Source: an uncultured Rubrobacteraceae bacterium
Lineage (GTDB): Bacteria > Actinomycetota > Rubrobacteria > Rubrobacterales > Rubrobacteraceae
Assembly (NCBI GenBank): GCA_902806085.1
Contig: CADCVH010000020.1
Span: 1 to 49,937, forward strand
DNA: 49,937 nt
Direction of reading: 5' to 3'
Under the pieces are notes generated by a model that worked only from the letters and a program-made list of their open reading frames with translations, was not told the DNA's origin and ran no database searches. The first letter of the stretch is position 1. Every line of letters starts with the position of its first letter. This document shows positions 7,360 through 49,245 of this stretch, one piece after another. Position numbers and translations under genes: made by a program.

Positions 7360-7575
7360 GTGGATGAGTCCGAAGAGACGCTGCGCTCCGAGAAGAGAGC
7401 CGAGATCGTCGTCTACTGCATGAACGAAGGGTGTGGGTCATCCAGGGAAGAGGTACGGGAGCTTACCGATATGGGCTACAAACACGTCCGGCACCACGCC
7501 GGCGGAGAGCAGGAGTGGGTAAAGGCTGTGCTGCCGATAGAAGGCAAACGTCCGTCGGATAGAGAGATCGGGTGA
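7360..7575 (+). CDS. Small rhodanese-like domain protein
   Basis: This 71-residue protein matches the second half of a rhodanese-like domain: AEIVVYCMNEGCGSSREEVR is the active-site strand and Cys loop, followed by LTDMGYKHVRHHAGGEQEW and a final hydrophobic LPIEG. The likely persulfide-carrying residue is Cys20; a second Cys follows five residues later, as in a known subgroup. The first half of the fold is missing or very short. The GTG at 7360 lacks a clear ribosome site. The frame stays open upstream, and CTG at 7345 after GGAGAAAGGAACG is an alternative start. The stop overlaps the GTG of the MFS gene (GTGA), which ties the two together. Confidence 0.72.
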   Translation: MDESEETLRSEKRAEIVVYCMNEGCGSSREEVRELTDMGYKHVRHHAGGEQEWVKAVLPIEGKRPSDREIG

Positions 7576-8804
7576 CGGGGACCGGGACGGGTACCGGGGA
7601 AGCCAACGCGAGCCGGTCCCGGCTGGTACTGGTAACGCTGCTGCTCGCCAGCACCCTGACCATCATGAGCGGGGCGACTATCTCTCCGTCTCTGCCGGGC
7701 ATCCAGGAGCAGTTCTCCGGAACGCCGAACGCGGAGCTACTGACGCGGCTGGTCTTGACCATGCCCGCCCTTTTCATAGCGATCTGCGCTCCCCTGGCCG
7801 GGACGCTGGTAGACCGGCTGGGCCGCAAGCCGGTGCTGCTGGTCTCGGTCGTCCTGTATGGGCTGGCCGGCGGCTCGGGGTTGGTACTCGGCAACCTGTA
7901 TACGATACTCGTCGGCCGGGCGCTCCTCGGCATAGCCGTCGCAGGCGTTATGACGAGTGCTACGACGCTAATCACGGACTACTACTCGGGGCAGGAGCGC
8001 TCCCGGGTCCTCGGGATACAGGCGGCTTTTATGGGTCTTGGCGGGGTTGCTTTTTTGACCTTCGGCGGCTTCCTGGCCGGAGTCGACTGGCGGGGGCCGT
8101 TCGCCATCTACCTGATCGCTCTGCTACTCGCGCCCCTGGTCGCGCTGAGGCTGGTAGAGCCTTCGAGGTACGCCTCGGAAGAGGGCTCGAAAGAGGGCGG
8201 GGATGACCACGGAGGGCAGGAGCCCACGGGCACTGCCCGGTTGCTGGCCGTTATCTACACTCTGGCTATCGTCGGCATGATCGTGTTCTACATGGTTCCG
8301 ACCCAGCTACCGTTCTACTTCGAGAACTTGCTCGGTATCGGGGCCACCGGAAGCGGCCTTGCCATAGCGCTGCTCTCCCTTTTTCAGTCCTTTACCTCCC
8401 TGTCTTACGGCAGCTTGCGTGCCAGGCTCGGCTACCGGACCGTGGCGATCATCACCTTCGCCCTGATCGGGGTCGGCTACGCCCTTATCGGGCTCGCGGG
8501 CAGTCTCCCTCTCGCCCTCTTGGGACTGGTCGTCGGCGGCTCTGGGGTAGGGTTGCTCCTGCCGAACCTGAACAACTGGGTCTCCTCCGGCACGCCGGTT
8601 GCCGTGAGGGGCCGGGCGCTGGGGGGCTTGACCTCCACGATCTTCCTGGGCCAGTTTCTTTCGCCGCTCCTCAGCCAGCCGGTCGGCGGAGCCTACGGAT
8701 TCGGGACCGCCTTTCTGGTGGCGGCGTTCATTTCGGTGGCCCTCATGGTCTTCGTGGCCGTAACCGGCAGGCAGAAGAGCTCCAAGCCAGCCACCGAGAC
8801 TTGA
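7572..8804 (+). CDS. MFS transporter
   Basis: This 410-residue inner-membrane transporter of the major facilitator superfamily has about twelve hydrophobic segments. The loop between helices 2 and 3 carries LVDRLGRKPVLL, the classic MFS motif A. The acidic-to-neutral central loop (SEEGSKEGGDDHGGQEPTG) separates the two six-helix halves. LVGRALLGIAVAGVM is like helix 4 of drug-proton antiporters, so multidrug or metabolite efflux is the most likely role, but no substrate can be named. Translation starts at GTG 7572, overlapping the rhodanese stop. The pairing with a sulfurtransferase hints at sulfur-compound or xenobiotic export but proves nothing. Confidence 0.93.
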   Translation: MTGTGTGTGEANASRSRLVLVTLLLASTLTIMSGATISPSLPGIQEQFSGTPNAELLTRLVLTMPALFIAICAPLAGTLVDRLGRKPVLLVSVVLYGLAGGSGLVLGNLYTILVGRALLGIAVAGVMTSATTLITDYYSGQERSRVLGIQAAFMGLGGVAFLTFGGFLAGVDWRGPFAIYLIALLLAPLVALRLVEPSRYASEEGSKEGGDDHGGQEPTGTARLLAVIYTLAIVGMIVFYMVPTQLPFYFENLLGIGATGSGLAIALLSLFQSFTSLSYGSLRARLGYRTVAIITFALIGVGYALIGLAGSLPLALLGLVVGGSGVGLLLPNLNNWVSSGTPVAVRGRALGGLTSTIFLGQFLSPLLSQPVGGAYGFGTAFLVAAFISVALMVFVAVTGRQKSSKPATET

Positions 8805-31878: not shown

Positions 31879-32109
31879 GAAACTGTCTGAAAAGGGGTAT
31901 TTGCGGGCTTACTCGGTACTCTAGCATTCATGAGAAGACTGTACTCGACCGATCTTTCCGATGCCGAATGGGCATGCCTTGAAGAGCACCTGCCGTCTCC
32001 GGAGAACGATGGGCGACCTCGGGTCCATAGTTTGCGTGAGATACTCGACGCCGTCTTCTACGTCGTCAAAAGCGGCTGCGCTTGGCGGCTCTTGCCCCGT
32101 GACTTCCCG
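31879..32109 (+). mobile_element. IS5-type element, left end and transposase N-terminus only
   Basis: GAAACTGTCTGAAAAGGG (31879-31896) resembles the terminal inverted repeat seen at 49.1 and 49.8 kb. The transposase starts at ATG 31930: MRRLYSTDLSDAEWACLEEH, LREILDAVFYVVKSGCAWRL and LPRDFPP are the N-terminal (DUF4096-type) domain of IS5/IS1182-like transposases. After PRDFPP (32109) similarity stops and no DDE domain follows. The element is a truncated remnant that marks the right limit of the foreign segment. The 32110-32278 stretch that follows holds no recognisable gene. Confidence 0.8.
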
Positions 32110-32278
32110 CCCTCTTCGTCCTTGAGGCTCTCTACGCCGCGTGGTCGGAGCGGCGCCAGCGCAAATCCCGCCTCGCACGGGCGCGAGAGTGAGCCGAGGA
32201 GCACCGCTACGAGCCGGTCCCATAGGGCAAGGACTTCCCCGAACCGCTGGGCGTTTTTCGTGGTCCGCCTTCGTGGTT

Positions 32279-41657: not shown

Positions 41658-42452
41658 TCAGCCACCGGCTTCGACCCTTATCTCGGACCCTAGCGGGGGC
41701 TGCCCGAACTCCTCCCAGGCGCTGCCACCGCGCAGGAAGAACTCCATCCACACCGTCTCTCCGCCCGACGCGCTCCTCCAGCCGCTGCTCCCGGGGGCGA
41801 AGGCCAGCTCCCCTTCCCCCACCCCGAAGGTGCCGTCGCTCGCCTTGGCCGTGAGCTCCTCCCCGCCGATACGCACCCGCACGGCCGCGCCGGGCTCGAT
41901 GCCATGCGCGCCGCTCCCGATGGTGGTCTTGAGGTTGCCGTAGCCATCGACGTAGGCGAGCCGGTTCTCGGGGACGCCCGGAATCTCGGCTGGGTCCATC
42001 TCCTCGCCTATAGCGCCGGGGCGGCCGAGGGCGATGTCGGCGGCTGCCTCGGGGAAGAGGTCGCGGGAGCGGAACTGGGAGCCTTCGGCGGAAACGGGGG
42101 CCCACCTGAGGTCCACGGCCTCGTCGCGCACGAAGGAGAAGGCGTAACCGGCGTTCACCCCGACCACGCGCACCCCGTTCGGCAGCAGCGCGTAGGCCAG
42201 CCGCTCCCCCTCGTTGCCCTCGCGGGCCTCCCCCTCGTCCTCGCGGGGCGCGACGTTGTGGTAGACGACGGTTCCGGGCGGGGCGGGGTTCAGGCCGAGC
42301 TGCGCCACGCAGAAGCCGGCGGCGAGCGTGGCGAACGGCGGCACGGCCACCAACACGGGCTCGGCGTCGGGGAGGTGGAGCTTTATGCGCCCGACGACCT
42401 CGGCGAACGCCAGGTCCCCGTGCCCGTAATCTGCGACTATGTGGACCAGCAT
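41658..42452 (-). CDS. SAM hydroxide adenosyltransferase (DUF62)
   Basis: This 264-residue protein belongs to the SAM hydroxide adenosyltransferase family, relatives of fluorinase that hydrolyse SAM to adenosine and methionine. Visible family features are the N-terminal VHIVADYGHGDLAFAEVVGR (the DxG motif region), PPGTVVYHNVAPRE and VVGVNAGYAFSFVRDEAVDL. VDGYGNLKTTI (conserved D-x-F/Y-GN) opens the C-terminal barrel domain. The start is ATG 42452 with GGGAGG five bases upstream (42458-42463); the longer frame from 42764 crosses into the DtxR gene region and is not used. Its role is probably regulation of SAM levels. Confidence 0.88.
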   Translation of the reverse strand: MLVHIVADYGHGDLAFAEVVGRIKLHLPDAEPVLVAVPPFATLAAGFCVAQLGLNPAPPGTVVYHNVAPREDEGEAREGNEGERLAYALLPNGVRVVGVNAGYAFSFVRDEAVDLRWAPVSAEGSQFRSRDLFPEAAADIALGRPGAIGEEMDPAEIPGVPENRLAYVDGYGNLKTTIGSGAHGIEPGAAVRVRIGGEELTAKASDGTFGVGEGELAFAPGSSGWRSASGGETVWMEFFLRGGSAWEEFGQPPLGSEIRVEAGG

Positions 42453-42675
42453 CACAGCCTCCCGGCCTCGTCGGCGTCCTTCCTCCGGTTGGACTGTACC
42501 CCGGGGGCCCGAAGAGCGCCACCGCACGGACCGCTCGTCGTTGGGCACCCAGGCCGTGTTGTGGACGGCGCTCGGGGCCGTCTTCGGCGCGCTCTGCGAG
42601 CGGGCAAACCGTAAGCAGCCGCTCTGACCTTCTAAGGAGACTCTGCGGCTTCCCGAACGCCGCGCGATCACCTGC

Positions 42676-43353
42676 CTACGAGCCCTGGACCAAAACCGAA
42701 GCCGCCAATACGCCCCCCAGCGCGTGGGAAACCCCGTCTTCGTCCTCGACGGTGACGACGCCATCGAGGGCGCGGACTTCCTCCACTCTTAGCACCCGAC
42801 CGGGTACGAGCCCGCGAGCTTCCAGGTAGGCCAAGGCGGGCGCATCCTCGCGGCCGACCCGCAAGATGCGGACGCGGTCGCCGACCGGGGCCCCGCTCAG
42901 GGGACGGGAGTCTTCCCGCGCCAGGGTGCCGTCGGCCCCCGGGATGGGAGCCCCGTGTGGGTCGCGATCGGGATGCCCCAGAAGCTGCGCCACGCGCTCG
43001 GTGAAGTTGTCGGAGACGGCGTGCTCGAGCCTCTCGGCCTCCTCGTGCACCTCCTCCCACGGGTACCCGAGGTGCTCCAGCAGGAACGTCTCGATCAGCC
43101 GGTGCCGCCGCACCAGCCTGAGGGCCTCCGCGTGCCCCTCCTCGGTGAGCGATGCCCCGCGGTAGCGTTCGTATTCGACGAGGCCCAGCTCCTGCAACCG
43201 CCTGAGCATTTCGGTGACGGAAGCCGAAGAGACCGAAAGCCGCGAAGAGAGGTCCTTGGGCGCGGCGACGCCGTGCCCGGCAAGCCCCCACACGGCCTTC
43301 AGGTAGTCGCCTACCGAGGAAGAGAGGGGCTGAGACATCGTGGGTTCGACCAT
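42676..43353 (-). CDS. DtxR/MntR-family metal-dependent repressor
   Basis: This 225-residue metalloregulator has an N-terminal winged helix (VGDYLKAVWGLAGHGVAAPK, DLSSRLSVSSASVTEMLRRL and GLVEYERYRGASLTEEG), a dimerisation and metal-binding domain (HRLIETFLLEHLGYPWEEVH with EAERLEHAVSDNFTERV) and a C-terminal SH3-like/FeoA domain (GDRVRILRVGREDAPALAYL to VTVEDEDGVSHALGG). It uses Fe(II) or Mn(II) as corepressor. It is divergent from the plus-strand locus at 43467. A TAGG-CAAA-CCTA box lies over that locus's promoter. The start is GTG/ATG at 43353. Confidence 0.93.
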   Translation of the reverse strand: MVEPTMSQPLSSSVGDYLKAVWGLAGHGVAAPKDLSSRLSVSSASVTEMLRRLQELGLVEYERYRGASLTEEGHAEALRLVRRHRLIETFLLEHLGYPWEEVHEEAERLEHAVSDNFTERVAQLLGHPDRDPHGAPIPGADGTLAREDSRPLSGAPVGDRVRILRVGREDAPALAYLEARGLVPGRVLRVEEVRALDGVVTVEDEDGVSHALGGVLAASVLVQGS

Positions 43354-43402
43354 CGCGCGAGGATTCTAGCAGAACGACCTTTCCACCAAGATCCGCACCC
43401 TC

Positions 43403-43448
43403 TTGACTTTTGGGTACCCTATATCGTATTTTAGGCAAACCTAGAAAA
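43403..43448 (+). promoter_or_regulatory. Promoter with DtxR-like box
   Basis: -35 TTGACT (43403-43408) and -10 TATTTT (43427-43432) are 18 bp apart. TTTTAGGCAAACCTAGAAAA (43429-43448), an imperfect palindrome centred on TAGG-CAAA-CCTA, overlaps the -10 and start site. It resembles half-sites (TTAGG/CCTAA) of DtxR/IdeR boxes. The divergent DtxR gene next to it is the likely regulator. Confidence 0.55.
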
Positions 43449-43466
43449 TCTTTAAGGGGAGCTTAT

Positions 43467-43640
43467 ATGGAGCGGTCGAGAGAGGCCTTGCGGGTGGCGG
43501 CGGGGCTGTCGCTGGTGGCGGCCCTGGCGCATGTCTGGGCGATGCCGGAGCACTTTGCGGAGTGGTGGGGCTATGGGGGGTTCTTCCTGGTCGTCGCCGT
43601 CGCCCAGGGTCTCTATGTGCAAGCCCTCCCGCACACGTAA
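43467..43640 (+). CDS. Small membrane protein, 57 residues
   Basis: This protein has two hydrophobic segments (LRVAAGLSLVAALAHVWAM and GGFFLVVAVAQGLYVQALP) joined by PEHFAEWWGYG. Both helices carry His residues, and the pattern is like the first two helices of larger conserved actinobacterial membrane proteins, so it may be a truncated copy. The start is ATG 43467, with AAGGGGA about seven bases upstream. It is the first gene behind the DtxR-like box. Function unknown; metal handling is suggested only by position. Confidence 0.7.
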   Translation: MERSREALRVAAGLSLVAALAHVWAMPEHFAEWWGYGGFFLVVAVAQGLYVQALPHT

Positions 43641-43661
43641 ACCCGGCAAGGAGGAAAGGAA

Positions 43662-43952
43662 ATCGCACACCCGCGCATAATCCGCCAACCCGACGGCTCG
43701 TACGAGCCCCCGACGGCGTACGAGCCGTCGGGGGACGCGCCAGGTTCCGGGTTCGAACTCGTGGTCGCCGGTAACGTGGCCACCTCCCCGCAGGTTCACC
43801 TGCTCGGCCTCCTGACGGGACGCGGCCTCGGCGTGACCGTCCGCGGCGATAGCCTGAAGGTACGGCGCCCGGGGAGCGTTTTTGGGCTTCCGGCGTTCCC
43901 GGTCGGGATAGATGGGCGCCCTAACCGGGGAACGCGCGGGAGGAGGCGATGA
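43662..43952 (+). CDS. Small protein of unknown function, possible ATC start
   Basis: This is a frame of 96 codons reading ...RQPDGSYEPPTAYEPSGDAP to GSVFGLPAFPVGIDGRPNRG. No ATG, GTG or TTG occurs near the N-terminus; the first GTG (43761) has no ribosome site. A perfect AAGGAGG (43648-43654) lies exactly seven bases before ATC 43662, so initiation at ATC is possible. The stop overlaps the ATG of the stress-protein gene (ATGA), which supports a coding role. The middle section (FELVVAGNVATSPQVHLLGL) looks like a beta-strand-rich domain. No family is recognised. A 16-bp perfect hairpin lies inside its 5' part. Confidence 0.6.
   Translation: MAHPRIIRQPDGSYEPPTAYEPSGDAPGSGFELVVAGNVATSPQVHLLGLLTGRGLGVTVRGDSLKVRRPGSVFGLPAFPVGIDGRPNRGTRGRRR
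43689..43732. repeat. 16-bp perfect inverted repeat inside a small gene
   Basis: CCCGACGGCTCGTACG (43689-43704) pairs perfectly with CGTACGAGCCGTCGGG (43717-43732) around a 12-base loop. It lies in the first third of the 96-codon frame, about 27 bases after its presumed start. A stem of this strength in an mRNA would affect translation, or it could be a protein-binding site. Confidence 0.7.
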
Positions 43953-44737
43953 GCTTCGTCGACAGGTACTGGGAGTGGAGGCGCGGGCGCGCCCTTGAGG
44001 CTTCCTTGAGAGCCTCGGAACGTGCCCGCGGGCTGGCGCTCGTCGCGGACGTCCTAATGGATCGCCGCGGCATCCCGCGACGCCCGGCCGACCAGGAACA
44101 GGGGCTGCCGGTGGGCGAGGCCGCCGCGGCAGCCGCCCGCCCCGACGGCGTCCCCTCGAACCGGCGGGCAAGAGCGCAGACGCTCAAGACGGCGCTCCCT
44201 CCCGACCGCGACGCCCGGCCGACGGTCCTGGCGGCCGTAGACGGGAGGAGGTCCTCCGCGGAGGTCGGTCGGTACGCCGTGCGCCTGGCAGAAGGCCTCG
44301 GGGCGAACCTGTTCGTGTTGAGCTTCATCAGCGTGGCGCCCGCCTCGCGCGCGGGCGTCCAGCGCCGCCTGGCCCTCGCGGAGCTGAAGCGGGATAGCGA
44401 CGACATGGTTAAGCAAACAGAGAAGCTGGCCGAAAGAAGCGGCGTCGAGTGCGCGGTGCGGCGGACGCTCGACCCCTGCCCCTCCCGGGCCGTGGTCGCA
44501 GCAGCAGAGGAGGTGAGAGCGTACTGCGTCGTGATCGGCTCTTCCAGCGCCTCGGTGGTGGATCGCCTGCTGGACCGGGCACTCGGGGGGGTGCACGAAA
44601 AGGTGCTCCGCCGGGCCGGGTGCCCCGTGCTGAGCGTCCGTCAAGGAACCGCCGCCACGGTGGCCCGGGCACAAGCGCCCGCCCCCGGGGGGGACCCCGG
44701 TGGGGACCCCGGTCGGAAAACGGCGGGCCCATGTTAG
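43949..44737 (+). CDS. Universal stress protein-type protein (UspA domain)
   Basis: This 262-residue protein has a UspA domain at about residues 90-235: ARPTVLAAVDGRRSSAEVGR opens it, LAEGLGANLFVLSFISVAP is the second strand, and YCVVIGSSSASVVDRLLDRA and GCPVLSVRQG end it. The ATP-binding pattern is incomplete (GSSSAS with one Gly), so nucleotide binding is uncertain. The N-terminal 85 residues are basic and unlike Usp, and the C-terminus is a Gly/Pro repeat (PGGDPGGDPG). It overlaps the small gene upstream. It probably protects against stress at this metal-linked locus. Confidence 0.82.
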   Translation: MSFVDRYWEWRRGRALEASLRASERARGLALVADVLMDRRGIPRRPADQEQGLPVGEAAAAAARPDGVPSNRRARAQTLKTALPPDRDARPTVLAAVDGRRSSAEVGRYAVRLAEGLGANLFVLSFISVAPASRAGVQRRLALAELKRDSDDMVKQTEKLAERSGVECAVRRTLDPCPSRAVVAAAEEVRAYCVVIGSSSASVVDRLLDRALGGVHEKVLRRAGCPVLSVRQGTAATVARAQAPAPGGDPGGDPGRKTAGPC

Positions 44738-44859
44738 ACCTCACGGGGCATGTCTGTTTAGAGGAGTGACGGGTTCTTCTACAACCTTTACGCGGTTTGC
44801 GGGATACCAGTAGACTTAAGCTCGTAATGTAAACACCGAGTTAACGGAGGAGGTACGGG

Positions 44860-45147
44860 ATGGCTCTCGAAGACTACCTGGAGTCCGAGGTGGTGGTGGC
44901 CGTTGCGGCGACCGCGGCGGTCCTTTCGCCGCGGGTGCGTAGGGTGCTGCGGCGCGGTGCGGTCTACGGGCTGGCGGGGGTGCTCAGGGCCGGGGACGCG
45001 ATCTCTTCGGCGGCCCCGGCCGTCAGCCAGGGCGCCCAGCAGGCCGCCGCCTCGGCCGCGGGCACGGTCCAGGACGTGGCCGGGCAGGCAAGGGCGGCCG
45101 CGGAGGGCGCCCAGACCGCGCGAAGCAACGAAGACCAACCCCGGTGA
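44860..45147 (+). CDS. Small alanine-rich membrane-associated protein
   Basis: This 95-residue protein has a hydrophobic N-terminus (SEVVVAVAATAAVLSPRVRR), a basic patch (RRVLRRG) and an Ala-rich helical tail (SQGAQQAAASAAGTVQDVAG). Layout and size resemble the DUF5132 and PacL-like small proteins often found in front of P-type ATPase genes, which act as membrane partners of the pump. No metal-binding His/Asp tail is seen. GGAGGAGGT lies just upstream of ATG 44860. The stop overlaps the next gene by four bases. Confidence 0.75.
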   Translation: MALEDYLESEVVVAVAATAAVLSPRVRRVLRRGAVYGLAGVLRAGDAISSAAPAVSQGAQQAAASAAGTVQDVAGQARAAAEGAQTARSNEDQPR

Positions 45148-45527
45148 GCGAGGACCGGGGCGGCCGGCAGAGCCGGCCGGCGACGGAGCGGGCCGAAGAG
45201 TTGGTGGATCGTGCGGGGGAAAGCGTAGGGTATCTCGCCTCCCTGGCCGGCTGGCGTCTCCTCAGGGCCGCGGCCTTCGTGCGTGAGGGGGCCGAGGACG
45301 TGTGGGCCGAGGCGCAGAGCGTTCGGCGCGCGCAGAGCGTGAGCGCCGAACGCCAGGAGGAGCGTTACGCCGGGACCGTCGGTGCCACGGAGCCTATCAA
45401 GGCCACCGACGTTGCCCGCCGGGTGGCCGAGGACCTGAACGTGGATCTGCGAGAGGTCACGGGGACCGGGGTGCACGGCCGGATCACCGCCGGCGACGTG
45501 AGGAGAAAGAGCAAAGAGGGCGCGTAG
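45144..45527 (+). CDS. Protein with stand-alone E3-binding (PSBD) domain
   Basis: This 127-residue protein has a C-terminal peripheral-subunit-binding domain: KATDVARRVAEDLNVDLREV and TGTGVHGRITAGDVRRKSK match the pattern that in 2-oxoacid dehydrogenase E2 proteins binds dihydrolipoamide dehydrogenase (E3). No lipoyl or acyltransferase domain is present. The N-terminal half is helical (RAEELVDRAGESVGYLASLA, then GWRLLRAAAFVREGAEDVWA). It overlaps the previous gene and lies 99 bp before the P-type ATPase. A PSBD apart from E2 could bring a flavoprotein or its own partner to the membrane proteins of the locus. Confidence 0.82.
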   Translation: MSEDRGGRQSRPATERAEELVDRAGESVGYLASLAGWRLLRAAAFVREGAEDVWAEAQSVRRAQSVSAERQEERYAGTVGATEPIKATDVARRVAEDLNVDLREVTGTGVHGRITAGDVRRKSKEGA

Positions 45528-45626
45528 ACCCGGGGTCGGCGCAGTGCTATGCCGGCCCCTACGGTGCTGCCCAGAACGCGTCGGAAGAATGAGAGGGGTG
45601 CTCGTGACAGAGACGCCGGGGGTTAG

Positions 45627-48300
45627 ATGAGCGCGGCCGTGGTCGAGGGGGTCGGCCTCGTCCATGCCACCCCCGGGCGGGTGCGGGTGCGCCTGCCGGG
45701 GTGGTCGGGACGCGGGCAGCGCGGGCTGGAGGCGCGGCTGCGCCGGATACGGGGGGTGCTCGGCGCGCGGGCCAACCCGCTGACCGGCAACGTCCTGATC
45801 CGGTTCGACCCGGCCGCGACGGACGAAGGGTCCGTCCTCGCGTCGCTGGAGGAGTTGCGCCCGGAGCTCGGCGGTCTGCCCGAGGACGGGCCGGAGCCCC
45901 CGCCCGCGCAGAGCGAGCGTCGCGCCCGCGACGGGCAAGGGCTTACCGGGAGGGCGCGCATAGCGGTGCGCGGTCTGGACCGCGACCCGCGGCTGGCCCG
46001 CCACGTTGTGGAGCGCCTCGGGTCCCGACCGGGGGTGAGGCGGGCGATCGCGAGCCCGCTCACCGGCCGCGTGCTGGTGGAGTTCGCCGAGGACGAGGTG
46101 GCCCTGGAGGACCTCCTCGCCGAGGTCTCCGGCCTGGAGCTGCCGGCGTCTCCCCACGAGGACCGCCCGGCCCACCCGCTCGAGCCCGGACGGGCGAGGC
46201 AGGGCGCGACCCGCGCGGCCGGCGCCGGTCTCGGGCTCGGTCTGCTCGCCGCGCGGCGGCTGGCCGGCCGCGCGGGACCGCCGGTGGGCAGTGCCGTCCC
46301 CGCGGTGGCGGGCGGCTTGATTGGCATCCTGCAAGGCTTTCCCGTGCTGCGCGACGGGCTGCGCCGGCTGCTCGATAGGGACACGGCCGACCTCGTACTG
46401 GGCGCGGCCGGGATAGCCACCCAGGTCCTCTCCGGCAGCCCGATCGGCCTGGTGCTCGGCGGCGCGGAGGCGCTTTTCCTGCTCTCCGAGGTCCGCTCGC
46501 GCAGGGCCGCCTGGCGCCACTACGAGGAGGAGACCGAGAACGCCCCGCCGCCGCATCCTGGGGCGGTGGTACGCCTGGAGGCCGGGGAGAGGACCCCGCT
46601 CGCCGCGGAGGTCATAGAGGGCACCGGCACCGCGACCGCCCGCGACGGCCTGCCCACGCCGATCGCGCCGGGCGCCGTCGTCGGCGCCGGCTCGCGGCTC
46701 CACGGCGGGCCGTTCGTGCTGGAGCTGCGCGGCGCCGGGCCGTTCACGCCGGAGCCCCGGACCGCCCCGGCCGCCCCGACGCTCTACGACCGGTACCTGC
46801 GGGGTGTGGGCCGGGTCGCGCTGGTGTACGCCGCGGCGACCGCCCTCCTGACGCGTTCCCCCTCCCGGGCCCTCAACGCCCTGCTGCTGGTCAACCCCCG
46901 CGCGGCCATCGTGGGCGCCGAAGCCGCCGGTTCCGGGGCTTCCGCGCGGGTGCTGCGCTCGGGAGTGACGGTGGTGGGTACGCGCCCGGAGCGGGGCGTG
47001 CGCCTGCCGGGCGTCCTGCTGCTCGACGGGCCCCGCGTGCTGACCGACGGCCTCGACGTCGGAGACGTCCTTCCCCTGGCCGATACCCACGACAACTCCG
47101 GCATCCTCGCGCGGGCGGCGTCCGTCGCTGCTGCGGCCGGGTCGCCGTGGGGGGACGCCTTCCGGAAGACGGGCACGATGACGGCCACCGACGGAAGCTT
47201 CGACGGCGAGGTGGCGACAGCCCGGATCGCCGGCGCGGGGTACTCGCTTCGGCCCGTCGGGGATCGGGACCCGGTGCCACCCGCCGCGCGCCTCCGGAAC
47301 CGGGGAGATCACCTGCTGTTGCTCCGCGACGAGCGCGGGGAGCCCCTCGGGATAGTCGCGCTGCGGCCCCGACTCGCGCCGGGCGTCGCAGAGATGGCCC
47401 GGGTTTGCCGGCTTCACGGGGTGGAGGTCGGGCTGCTCGCCGCCGGCGATCCCGTGTCGTCCGCGGCGGTCGCCCGCCGCGCGGAGGTGCCGCTGGTCGC
47501 GGACGGCGACGCCGTTGGGAGCATCCGGGAGAGGCAGGAGGGAGGAGCACGCGTCGCCTTCGTCTCGGACAACGCGGGCGCCGCGGCGGCGTTTGAGGCC
47601 TGCGACCTGGCGATAGGCCTCGCGGACGGCCGCGCCCACCTGCCCGCCCGCGCCGACCTGCTGGCCCCCGACCTCGACGGGGTCGCCGCCATCGTGGAGG
47701 CGGGCGCGCGGCGCGAGAGGGCGGTGCGGGACTCGGTCGCGCTCTCGGCGCTCGCCGACGCCGTCGGCGCGGCCTGGGGCCTCCGCGCCCGTCCGGGGGT
47801 AGAACGTTCCGGCTTGCCGACCAGCATCTCCGCCCTCGGCGCCCTGGCGGCCGGGTGGGCGCGGCTCCGCGGTGGTGGGCGGCCACGCTCGTCCGCCCCG
47901 CAGGTGGCGGACCCTCGCCCGGAGCGCTGGGGGCGGCTCGGTACGGATGAGGTGCTGCGCGCCCTGGACGCCACGGATGAGGGCCTCTCGAGCGCCGGGG
48001 CCGCGGAGCGCCGCCGACCGGAGCCGACGCCCGTGCGCGCCAACAGGTTGCTGCGCGCGATCCTGGACCAGCTCCGCTCCCCGCTTACCGGGGTCCTCGC
48101 GGCCGGCGCGGGCCTCTCGCTCGTCCTCGGATCCCCCGGCGACGTGGCCATGATAAGCGCGATGATCGTGGCAAACGCCGCCGCCGGCGTCTGGCAGGAA
48201 CGCCTGGCTGACCGTACCGCCGAGGCGCTGGAGCGCATGGGCACCGTCAACGCGGACGTCCTGCGCGACGGAGCTGACTCGACGGTGCCGGCGGAGGAGG
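45627..48300 (+). pseudogene. Large CtpI-like P-type ATPase, truncated by an IS remnant
   Basis: About 891 codons remain. The N-terminus has two HMA2-like domains; the first has HATPGRVRVRLPGW (HxxPGRxRxR motif) and the second GLTGRARIAVRGLDRDPRLA. A degenerate ATPase module follows: LLLDGPRVLTDGLDVGDV replaces DKTGTLT, and FVSDNAGAAAAFEACDLAIG corresponds to the GDGxNDAPAL hinge. From about residue 770 a second module begins with a cation-ATPase N-domain and first helices (DQLRSPLTGVLAAGAGLSLV). It stops after VLRDGADSTVPAEE, at the transposase remnant. This two-module layout is like mycobacterial CtpI. The canonical phosphorylation site and later helices are gone, so transport is not expected. 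The frame runs on as nonsense to 48920. Confidence 0.85.
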
Positions 48301-49129
48301 CCGCCCCCGAACAAGCGAGGACGACCGAGGGCTCACGCCGCTCGCGAGATACTCGATGCCATCTTCTACGTGCTCAAGAGCGGCTGTCCCTGGCGACTCT
48401 TGCCACGCGACTTCCCGCCCTGGGAGACCGTCTACCGGTGGTTCGGGAGGTGGCGCGCGGACGGCACCTTCGAGCGGCTCGACGCCGCGCTACGCGAGCA
48501 GCTGCGAGCCCGGTCGGGCAGAAACCCGCTGCCCAGCGCGGGTATTGCCGACTCCCAGACGACCAAGACCACAGGGGTCGGCAGAGAACAGAGAGGCTAC
48601 GACGGCAACAAGAAGGTGAGGGGCAGAAAGCGCCACCTGCTGGTGGACACGGAAGGCTTGGTCCTCAAAGCCAAGGTCCGCAGCGCCAAGGTGCCCGACC
48701 AGGACGGGCTGAAGCTGCTGCTGGGGTCGGCGCGGGGCGGGCTCTCTCGCCTCAAGCACCCGTGGCTGGATGCCGGCTACCAGGGCAGGGGCAAGAGGTG
48801 GGCCGAGGAGGTTTTGGACCTGAGCGTGGGGGTGGTGCGCAAGCCGCCAAAGCCGGTACCCGAGAAGGTGGCCAAGAGGTGGGCGGAGGAACGGGCCAAG
48901 GCGGAGGGCAAGAAGCTTGACTGGCAGAAGTTCATGACGCCGCGGGGGTACGTAGCATTGCCGAGGAGGTGGGTGGTGGAGCGGACCTTCTCGTGGCTGG
49001 GCCAGAACAGGCGGATGAGCAAGGACCACGAGCGGCCGTGCGCCAGCGCGGAAGCGTTCGTCTACGCGGCCATGATCCGGCTGATGGTGAGGAGGTTGGC
49101 ACGTGCTTGAGGATTTCCAAACAGTTTCT
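48301..49129 (+). mobile_element. IS5-family element, 5'-truncated, with transposase remnant
   Basis: Transposase sequence runs from 48301 to the stop at 49110 (269 residues): PPPNKRGRPRAHAAREILDA, FYVLKSGCPWRLLPRDFPPW, GIADSQTTKTTGVGREQRGY (DDE Asp region), GRKRHLLVDTEGLVLKAKV and WVVERTFSWLGQNRRMSKDH (catalytic Glu region). The N-terminal 20-40 residues and the left terminal repeat are missing, replaced by the ATPase. GGATTTCCAAACAGTTTC (49111-49128) is the right inverted repeat. The DDE core looks intact, but the missing left end prevents movement. Starts such as GTG 48370 are inside the domain and not the native one. Confidence 0.85.
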
Positions 49130-49245
49130 CCACGCACTCGAGTGAATAGGCACGGAAATAGCGCGTTTGGGTGATACGCCGATCCCCCTCCTGCCCTACG
49201 ATGCCTTTATTGCGTGCGAGTTGCTTGCGAGCGAGGAGCGTGGGC

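What the first reader, a model, noticed from the sequence alone, without database searches (positions are those of the whole stretch)
42676..48300. Possible metal-handling locus: DtxR box, PSBD protein and HMA2/P-type ATPase
A DtxR-type regulator is divergent from a plus-strand series with a DtxR-like box over the first promoter. The series is: small membrane protein, small ATC-start protein, UspA-like protein, Ala-rich small membrane protein, stand-alone E3-binding-domain protein, and a double-HMA2 P-type ATPase with an HxxPGRxRxR motif. This motif and the small membrane partners recall iron-compartment (ferrosome, fez) and PacL-type metal systems, as far as I remember them. The PSBD protein as a possible adaptor is new to me. 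The ATPase is broken here, so intact relatives would show the real system.
Basis: partly seen in the sequence, partly recalled or inferred. Interest (0 to 1): 0.7.

Follow-up and report, generated by a model that had tools for sequence, protein, structure and literature searches.

The report
MntR-linked metal pump with scaffold partners
Next to a manganese-type regulator this bacterium carries a decayed copy of an operon that, in intact relatives from several phyla, pairs two small proteins with a giant, never-characterised P-type ion pump, so its likely metal and its partners can now be tested.

Summary
A DtxR-family regulator with the metal ligands of Mn sensors (MntR type) lies beside a box (43429-43446) over the only promoter-like site nearby. 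The pump is cut at about codon 891 by an IS5 remnant and its catalytic half is missing from the assembly. Intact relatives occur in Rubrobacteraceae, Solirubrobacterales, Chloroflexota, Armatimonadetes, Gemmatimonadetes and Planctomycetota, nearly always preceded by the same two small genes. The pump is not a P1B/fez ATPase. It belongs to the uncharacterised CtpI/CtpH group (FUPA24): a degenerate ATPase half fused to a catalytic half with a complete Ca/Mn-type (P2A) ligand set. The PSBD is only a Rubrobacteraceae tail; the conserved part is a motif, REEAEDIWAEAQ, resembling the pump-stabilising segment of PacL/DUF6110 scaffolds. In one relative the unit follows a TroA-type importer operon with a similar box at its start. 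Best reading: an MntR-repressed, Mn2+ (or Ca2+) handling pump with a split PacL-like scaffold. Metal, direction and complex formation are inferred. UspA, the ATC-start ORF and the first membrane protein are not conserved parts. New variant of a known kind.

The parts
42676..43353 (-). DtxR-family regulator of MntR type (D16, E107, E110, H111 ligands; FeoA-like C-terminal domain)
   Evidence: Pfam; closest NCBIfam models are MntR/DtxR below cut-off; PDB alignment to ScaR/SloR/MntR; ligand columns
43403..43432 (+). Promoter-like site TTGACT-18-TATTTT of the plus-strand genes
   Evidence: 1 found, 0.1 expected in shuffles
43429..43446 (.). DtxR/MntR-like box TTTTAGGCAAACCTAGAA overlapping the -10; a second palindrome-like site lies at 43409-43421
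43467..43640 (+). Small hydrophobic protein (57 aa); homologue in the near sister genome G003 and a weak one in L065; not a general member
43662..43951 (+). ATC-start open frame; no family, absent in sister genome; doubtful gene, not part of the system
43949..44737 (+). UspA-like protein; not conserved at this place
   Evidence: Pfam Usp
44860..45147 (+). Partner 1 ('AlaMP'): conserved N-terminal segment EDYLESEVxVAVAATAAVLSPRxRxVLRRGAVYGLAGVLxAGD, then Ala/Gln-rich tail
45144..45527 (+). Partner 2: conserved AEDxWAEAQ helix (PacL/DUF6110-like) plus a PSBD tail found only in Rubrobacteraceae
45411..45503 (+). E3-binding (PSBD) domain of partner 2
45627..48300 (+). Truncated FUPA24/CtpI-type P-type ATPase: HMA_2 domains, degenerate ATPase half and the first part of the catalytic half; most of the catalytic half (DKTGT, later membrane helices) missing (end approximate)
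45657..45827 (+). HMA_2 domain with HATPGRVRVR
47025..47045 (+). Degenerate phosphorylation site DGPRVLT (DKTGTLT in the catalytic half of intact pumps)
48300..49152 (+). IS5-family transposase remnant, left end missing, fused to the broken pump gene (ends approximate)

Best explanation
The window holds a decayed copy of a conserved unit: two small membrane-associated proteins followed by a FUPA24/CtpI-type P-type ATPase, here next to an MntR-type regulator. In intact copies the pump is a tandem of an inactive, degenerate P-type ATPase half and an active half with a full P2A (Ca2+/Mn2+) ligand set, preceded by HMA_2 domains. Inferred mechanism: when Mn2+ is sufficient, MntR-Mn binds the box over the -10 and represses; when Mn2+ is scarce the unit is expressed, in one relative probably together with a TroA-type importer. 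The two small proteins act like a split PacL scaffold: partner 1 anchors and clusters in the membrane, and partner 2's AEDIWAEAQ helix stabilises the pump, possibly by docking on the HMA_2 domain. The pump moves Mn2+ (less likely Ca2+), by homology from the cytosol outward or into a membrane compartment. Shown here by computation: conservation, adjacency, domain content, ligand residues, box position. Inferred: Mn2+ as substrate, repression, direction, scaffold and docking. In this genome the catalytic half is lost, so the unit is probably non-functional.
For: Gene pair plus pump kept across several phyla; partner 2 missing or displaced in a few loci. In 396 actinobacterial genomes partner 1 occurs in 7, each with the pump; the two pump-only cases are contig edges. 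Catalytic half closest to LMCA1 and SPCA1; PE(G/S)LP, N..E and N..(T/S)D kept in all 17 intact pumps. N-half is a degenerate P-type ATPase (hhalign P 1.2e-9 over 452 columns). MntR-type ligands. MntR adjacent in Rubrobacteraceae and Chloroflexia loci, the only recurring neighbour family recognised apart from importer genes in a few loci. Same-strand troA-ABC-permeases-partner1-partner2-pump-ZIP order in L033, MntR divergent, box at the troA/mntR junction; importer is TroA-like. Partner 2 has DUF6110 as its most frequent Pfam hit (7 of 20, sub-threshold) and its median score against a PacL+DUF6110 profile exceeds the 99th percentile of shuffles. The cytoplasmic Glu/Ala region of PacL1 is needed for pump levels (PMC9374683).
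Against: MntR is not linked in the Ktedonobacteria, Solirubrobacterales or single loci of other phyla, so Mn is supported only in two lineages. P2A ligands fit Ca2+ as well as Mn2+. Repression together with an importer fits poorly with plain efflux. Partner 2's similarity to DUF6110/PacL is below curated thresholds and rests on about 20 residues (hhalign P 5.8e-4); partner 1 shows no significant homology (best scores about 10 bits). Structure models of both partners are low confidence. The box is variable in relatives, and no box was found in the Chloroflexia loci.
Confidence: 0.5

Rival explanations
1. A Ca2+ (or other alkaline-earth) pump with the same split scaffold; the MntR linkage is lineage-specific and says little about the cargo.
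For: Closest solved pump is the Ca2+ ATPase LMCA1, ligands are SERCA-like; most non-Rubrobacter, non-Chloroflexia loci have no MntR. CtpI and CtpH were grouped in silico as alkali/alkaline-earth pumps (PMC3573892).
Against: MntR linkage in two separate lineages, and the troA-type importer operon running into the unit in L033.
Confidence: 0.22
2. A Mn2+ detoxification exporter that MntR-Mn activates, like mntP or mneP.
For: P2A pumps move cations out of the cytosol; bacterial MntR can activate exporters (own knowledge).
Against: The box overlaps the -10 rather than lying upstream of the -35; in L033 the unit follows importer genes on the same strand.
Confidence: 0.12
3. An uptake pump, as shown for CtpE and Ca2+ in Mycobacterium smegmatis.
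For: Association with importers (TroA-type ABC, ZIP) and a repression-type box position; an importing bacterial P-type ATPase exists (PMC5615198).
Against: CtpE lacks the TM6 Asp (PMC10654040), which is invariant here.
Confidence: 0.1
4. A ferrosome/fez-type iron system.
For: HMA_2 HxxPGRxR motif and a DUF6110-like partner, as in P1B6 loci.
Against: TM4 is PEGLP, as in P2 pumps, not a P1B signature; double-length pump; Mn-type regulator. FezC (DUF4405) was not looked for systematically.
Confidence: 0.04
5. The PSBD protein ties the pump to 2-oxoacid dehydrogenase E1/E3.
For: Good PSBD match (E 3.4e-11 in Pfam; nearest PDB entries are E2 PSBDs).
Against: PSBD absent from the partner outside Rubrobacteraceae; about ten ORFs with PSBD in this genome, some on a phasin-like and a PhaE-like protein.
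Confidence: 0.02

Closest known systems
CtpI/CtpH group, FUPA24 (TC 3.A.3.24)
   Same: Double-length P-type ATPase with catalytic motifs in the C-terminal half and PEGL/PEGM in TM4; profile similarity to CtpI/CtpH-like pumps (E 1e-48 to 1e-63)
   Different: Has HxxPGRxR HMA_2 and an adjacent partner pair; the partners were undetected in the three CtpI/CtpH-like loci examined, and the HMA_2 profile matched those pumps weakly or not at all
PacL-Ctp effluxosomes (DUF1490 with CtpC, CtpG, CtpV)
   Same: Small membrane-associated protein encoded just before a P-type ATPase with an HMA_2-like N-terminus; related (A/E)D(I/V)xAEA motif
   Different: Scaffold split in two genes, no C-terminal His/Asp metal-binding motif, P2A-type rather than P1B pump, MntR link
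DUF6110 plus P1B6 ATPase loci (fez-like)
   Same: HMA_2 HxxPGRxR start of the pump and DDIVAEA-type partner motif
   Different: Pump family, TM4 motif and regulator class differ
P2A Ca2+/Mn2+ ATPases (LMCA1, SPCA1, SERCA)
   Same: PEGLP, TM5 N..E and TM6 N..TD ligands in the catalytic half
   Different: Extra degenerate ATPase half and HMA_2 domains; tightly linked small partners
MntR/ScaR/SloR Mn-dependent regulators
   Same: D and E ligands at the Mn-selective positions, FeoA-like C-terminal domain
   Different: Below NCBIfam MntR/DtxR equivalog cut-offs; adjacent to a P-type pump

Membership tests
FUPA24 (CtpI/CtpH-type P-type ATPase) | About twice normal length with functional motifs in the C-terminal half | tested here: met
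   Intact relatives 1559-1800 aa in open frame, DKTGT at about residue 1068-1245
FUPA24 (CtpI/CtpH-type P-type ATPase) | PEGL-type TM4 motif, ten-helix P2-like C half | tested here: met
   PE(G/S)LP in 17 of 17; Cation_ATPase_C 2.2e-20; helix number itself not tested
FUPA24 (CtpI/CtpH-type P-type ATPase) | Sequence similarity to CtpI/CtpH | tested here: met
   Pump profile hits CtpH/CtpI-like ORFs of three actinobacterial genomes, E 1e-48 to 1e-63; genomes unnamed, and a KdpB-like locus scores 8e-32, so part of the signal is general
P1B ATPase / P1B6 (FezB-like) | P1B-type TM4 motif (CPx/SPC or SCA), no P2 motif | tested here: not met
   TM4 is PEGLP
PacL / DUF1490 | Pfam DUF1490 over cut-off, TM domain plus C-terminal metal-binding motif | tested here: not met
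   No DUF1490 match for either partner; no C-terminal His/Asp motif in alignments
DUF6110 (PacL-like) | Pfam DUF6110 over 26-bit cut-off | tested here: not met
   Best 17.1 bits, E 0.006; 7 of 20 members match sub-threshold
Ferrosome (fez) | P1B6 FezB with FezA/FezC and iron granules | tested here: inconclusive
   Pump type not met; granules not testable, FezC not searched systematically
MntR (Mn-type DtxR) | Asp and Glu at the positions that are Met and Cys in IdeR/DtxR | tested here: met
   D16 and E107; IdeR has M and C; L074's copy departs
MntR (Mn-type DtxR) | Mn-dependent DNA binding | not testable with these tools
   needs biochemistry
E2 component of 2-oxoacid dehydrogenase | Lipoyl and catalytic domains besides PSBD | tested here: not met
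   E3_binding is the only significant domain in 127 aa

The most novel reading that the evidence does not exclude
A Mn-starvation-induced pump plus two-part scaffold builds a membrane platform or compartment that stores or delivers manganese, a manganese counterpart of the ferrosome; and HMA_2 domains and AED(I/V)xAEA helices form a docking pair used by three different P-type ATPase families.
Probability: 0.12. Interest if true: 0.88.

Novelty: new variant of a known kind. Interest (0 to 1): 0.58.

Why it matters
CtpI and CtpH form an isolated branch of P-type ATPases with no known cargo; a 2023 review says it is not known whether they work as pumps (PMC10654040). Relatives with a linked Mn-type regulator, an importer neighbour and tightly linked small partners give this group a concrete cargo hypothesis, and cultured carriers exist (Dictyobacter, Ktedonosporobacter). 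The parallel HMA_2 plus AED-motif pairing suggests that PacL-like scaffolding reaches beyond P1B pumps.

Tried and rejected
Iron/ferrosome membership: rejected on pump type and regulator ligands. PSBD as conserved adaptor: rejected, lineage-specific tail. UspA, ATC-start ORF and first membrane protein as members: rejected, not kept in relatives (UspA-like genes lie near a few other loci but not in a fixed place). Riboswitch control (yybP-ykoY): Rfam found none in the pump loci tested; only an unrelated c-di-GMP-I aptamer in L033. Homology of partner 1 to DUF6110/DUF1490: hhalign not significant. First hhalign run of partner 2 used a wrong motif filter and was redone. Genome-wide regulon by box: only one other site, 2 mismatches, beside unrelated genes, and the reversed control pattern gave as many hits. 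Rest of the pump gene elsewhere in the assembly: not found.
Full report
Setting. The window is one whole contig of a 4.4 Mb, 133-contig assembly. Its nearest relatives by the pump gene are uncultured Rubrobacteraceae, so the source is taken to be a Rubrobacteraceae genome (inference).

What is in the sequence. On the minus strand lies a DtxR-family regulator (42676-43353). On the plus strand follow a 57-aa hydrophobic protein, an ATC-start open frame, a UspA-like protein, an Ala-rich protein (partner 1), a protein with a PSBD tail (partner 2) and a P-type ATPase fragment. The pump matches its relatives up to about 48300 and then runs into an IS5-family transposase lacking its left end. A search for the missing half finds only other P-type ATPases in this assembly. 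Other IS5 copies are at most about 87% identical over long stretches, which makes an assembly join between copies unlikely but does not exclude it.

What relatives keep. Ten neighbourhoods from the family and 38 named loci from genome contigs, some of them the same contigs, show partner 1, partner 2 and the pump together in Rubrobacteraceae, Solirubrobacterales/Conexibacter, Thermomicrobiales and other Chloroflexia, Ktedonobacteria, an Armatimonadetes, a Gemmatimonadetes and a Planctomycetota MAG. Exceptions: L084 shows neither partner, L091 has the partner-2 motif only downstream of the pump, L087 has it divergent upstream and again downstream, and L095-L097 are distant pump relatives without partners. 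In 396 actinobacterial genomes partner 1 is found in 7, all with the pump; the two genomes with pump only have it at a contig edge. The unit is patchy even inside Rubrobacteraceae (9 genomes of those sampled). The 57-aa protein is kept in the sister genome and weakly in L065; the ATC frame and UspA are not kept in place. Some of these MAG assignments could be binning errors.

The pump. Intact copies are 1559-1800 aa as open frames. Their C-terminal half has E1-E2_ATPase, Hydrolase and Cation_ATPase_C domains, is closest in the PDB to LMCA1 and then SPCA1, and in 17 of 17 sequences keeps PE(G/S)LP in TM4, N..E in TM5 and N..(T/S)D in TM6. By established knowledge of SERCA these are the Ca2+/Mn2+ ligands. 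The N-terminal half aligns to the C-terminal half over 452 columns (hhalign P 1.2e-9), with the DKTGTLT site read DGPRVLT in this family, so it is a degenerate ATPase copy. Mycobacterial CtpI and CtpH are described as double-length pumps of the same kind, are classed FUPA24 and have no known function (PMC3573892; PMC10654040).

The small partners. Partner 1 has an almost invariant segment around SPRxRxVLRRGAVYGLAGVLxAGD and a variable tail, Ala/Gln-rich in Rubrobacteraceae; its model is helical with low confidence. Partner 2 has the core REEAEDIWAEAQSIRR in almost all members; the PSBD is present only in Rubrobacteraceae, and Ktedonobacteria mostly carry two copies of the core module. DUF6110 is its most frequent Pfam hit, 7 of 20 members, all below the cut-off. 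A profile built only from PacL and DUF6110 proteins ranks several partner-2 proteins at the top of 8667 ORFs, and their median score (7.4 bits) exceeds the 99th percentile of the scored shuffles (6.1), though single shuffles reach 11.3. I read this as probable but unproven kinship. Boudehen et al. report that PacL1 needs its cytoplasmic Glu/Ala region for CtpC levels and that DUF6110 proteins sit beside P1B6 pumps (PMC9374683).

A shared HMA_2 start. A profile of the HxxPGRxR domain of these pumps matches PacL-linked pumps (1e-13 to 3e-10) and DUF6110-linked P1B6 pumps (7e-9 to 5e-6), less clearly two CtpI-like pumps, and not the CtpH-like pump. The three CtpI/CtpH-like loci examined show neither partner. 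HMA_2 with PGRxR and an AED(I/V)xAEA neighbour therefore go together in three pump families. The P1B6 and PacL loci were picked through the partner, so this is suggestive only.

Regulation. The regulator has Asp and Glu at the positions that are Met and Cys in IdeR, as in ScaR, SloR and MntR. It is adjacent or near to the unit in the window, L040/L060, L033/L063, L037/L079, L038, and in Chloroflexia L065, L075, L090 and, with a divergent sequence, L074; no other recognised family recurs beside the pump, apart from importer genes in a few loci. In L033 the order on one strand is TroA-type binding protein, ABC ATPase, two permeases, partner 1, partner 2, pump and a ZIP transporter, with MntR divergent and a box TTTAGGCAAGACTAAA at the junction. 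In the window the box overlaps the -10 of the only promoter-like site. This position suggests repression (inference). Whether the pump shares the importer transcript in L033 is inferred from strand and spacing. No box was found in the Chloroflexia loci.

How it most likely works. See best explanation. Expression in Mn scarcity with an outward-type pump is a real tension. It is eased if the pump supplies Mn to extracytoplasmic enzymes or a compartment, as PMR1/SPCA does in eukaryotes (own knowledge) and as Fur-repressed ferrosome genes do for iron storage; or if the cargo is a competing cation such as Ca2+; or if the pump imports, like CtpE.

Novelty. Each element has a known relative, but the combination (a FUPA24 pump with a split PacL-like scaffold, linked to MntR) was not met in the papers searched (the library lacks most subscription journals). 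Hence: new variant of a known kind.

Noticed in passing
L155:3830-4855(-) and L152:3852-4952(+) (own genome, contigs C79 and C51): PSBD tails also sit on a PhaE-like protein next to a PhaC-like gene and on a phasin-like protein with two PSBDs; about ten ORFs of this genome carry PSBDs, some clearly not E2 enzymes. A PSBD tail may be a granule or assembly module in Rubrobacteraceae.
   Followed up: partly
L152:1519-12491: Cluster of related proteins with long EDVGSGAG or AQQAQDAAG repeats, PSBD-like tails and a ParA-like protein beside them; function unclear.
   Followed up: no
L073, L080, L081, L083 (Ktedonobacteria), about 7500-8500: A second, divergent partner-2/partner-1 gene pair lies upstream of the unit, with no second pump recognised in the stretch held.
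   Followed up: no
L041/L061 (G003): The sister genome has a second copy of the unit beside a TroA-type importer, with what looks like a fragment of a DtxR gene.
   Followed up: partly
L033:19013-19094(-): c-di-GMP-I riboswitch aptamer next to a gene that looks like a subtilisin-type protease.
   Followed up: no
window 41658-42764(-): ORF resembling the SAM hydroxide adenosyltransferase (DUF62) family by eye; not tested.
   Followed up: no
window 32035-32113: Short fragment 85% identical to the IS5-family element that ends the pump gene.
   Followed up: no
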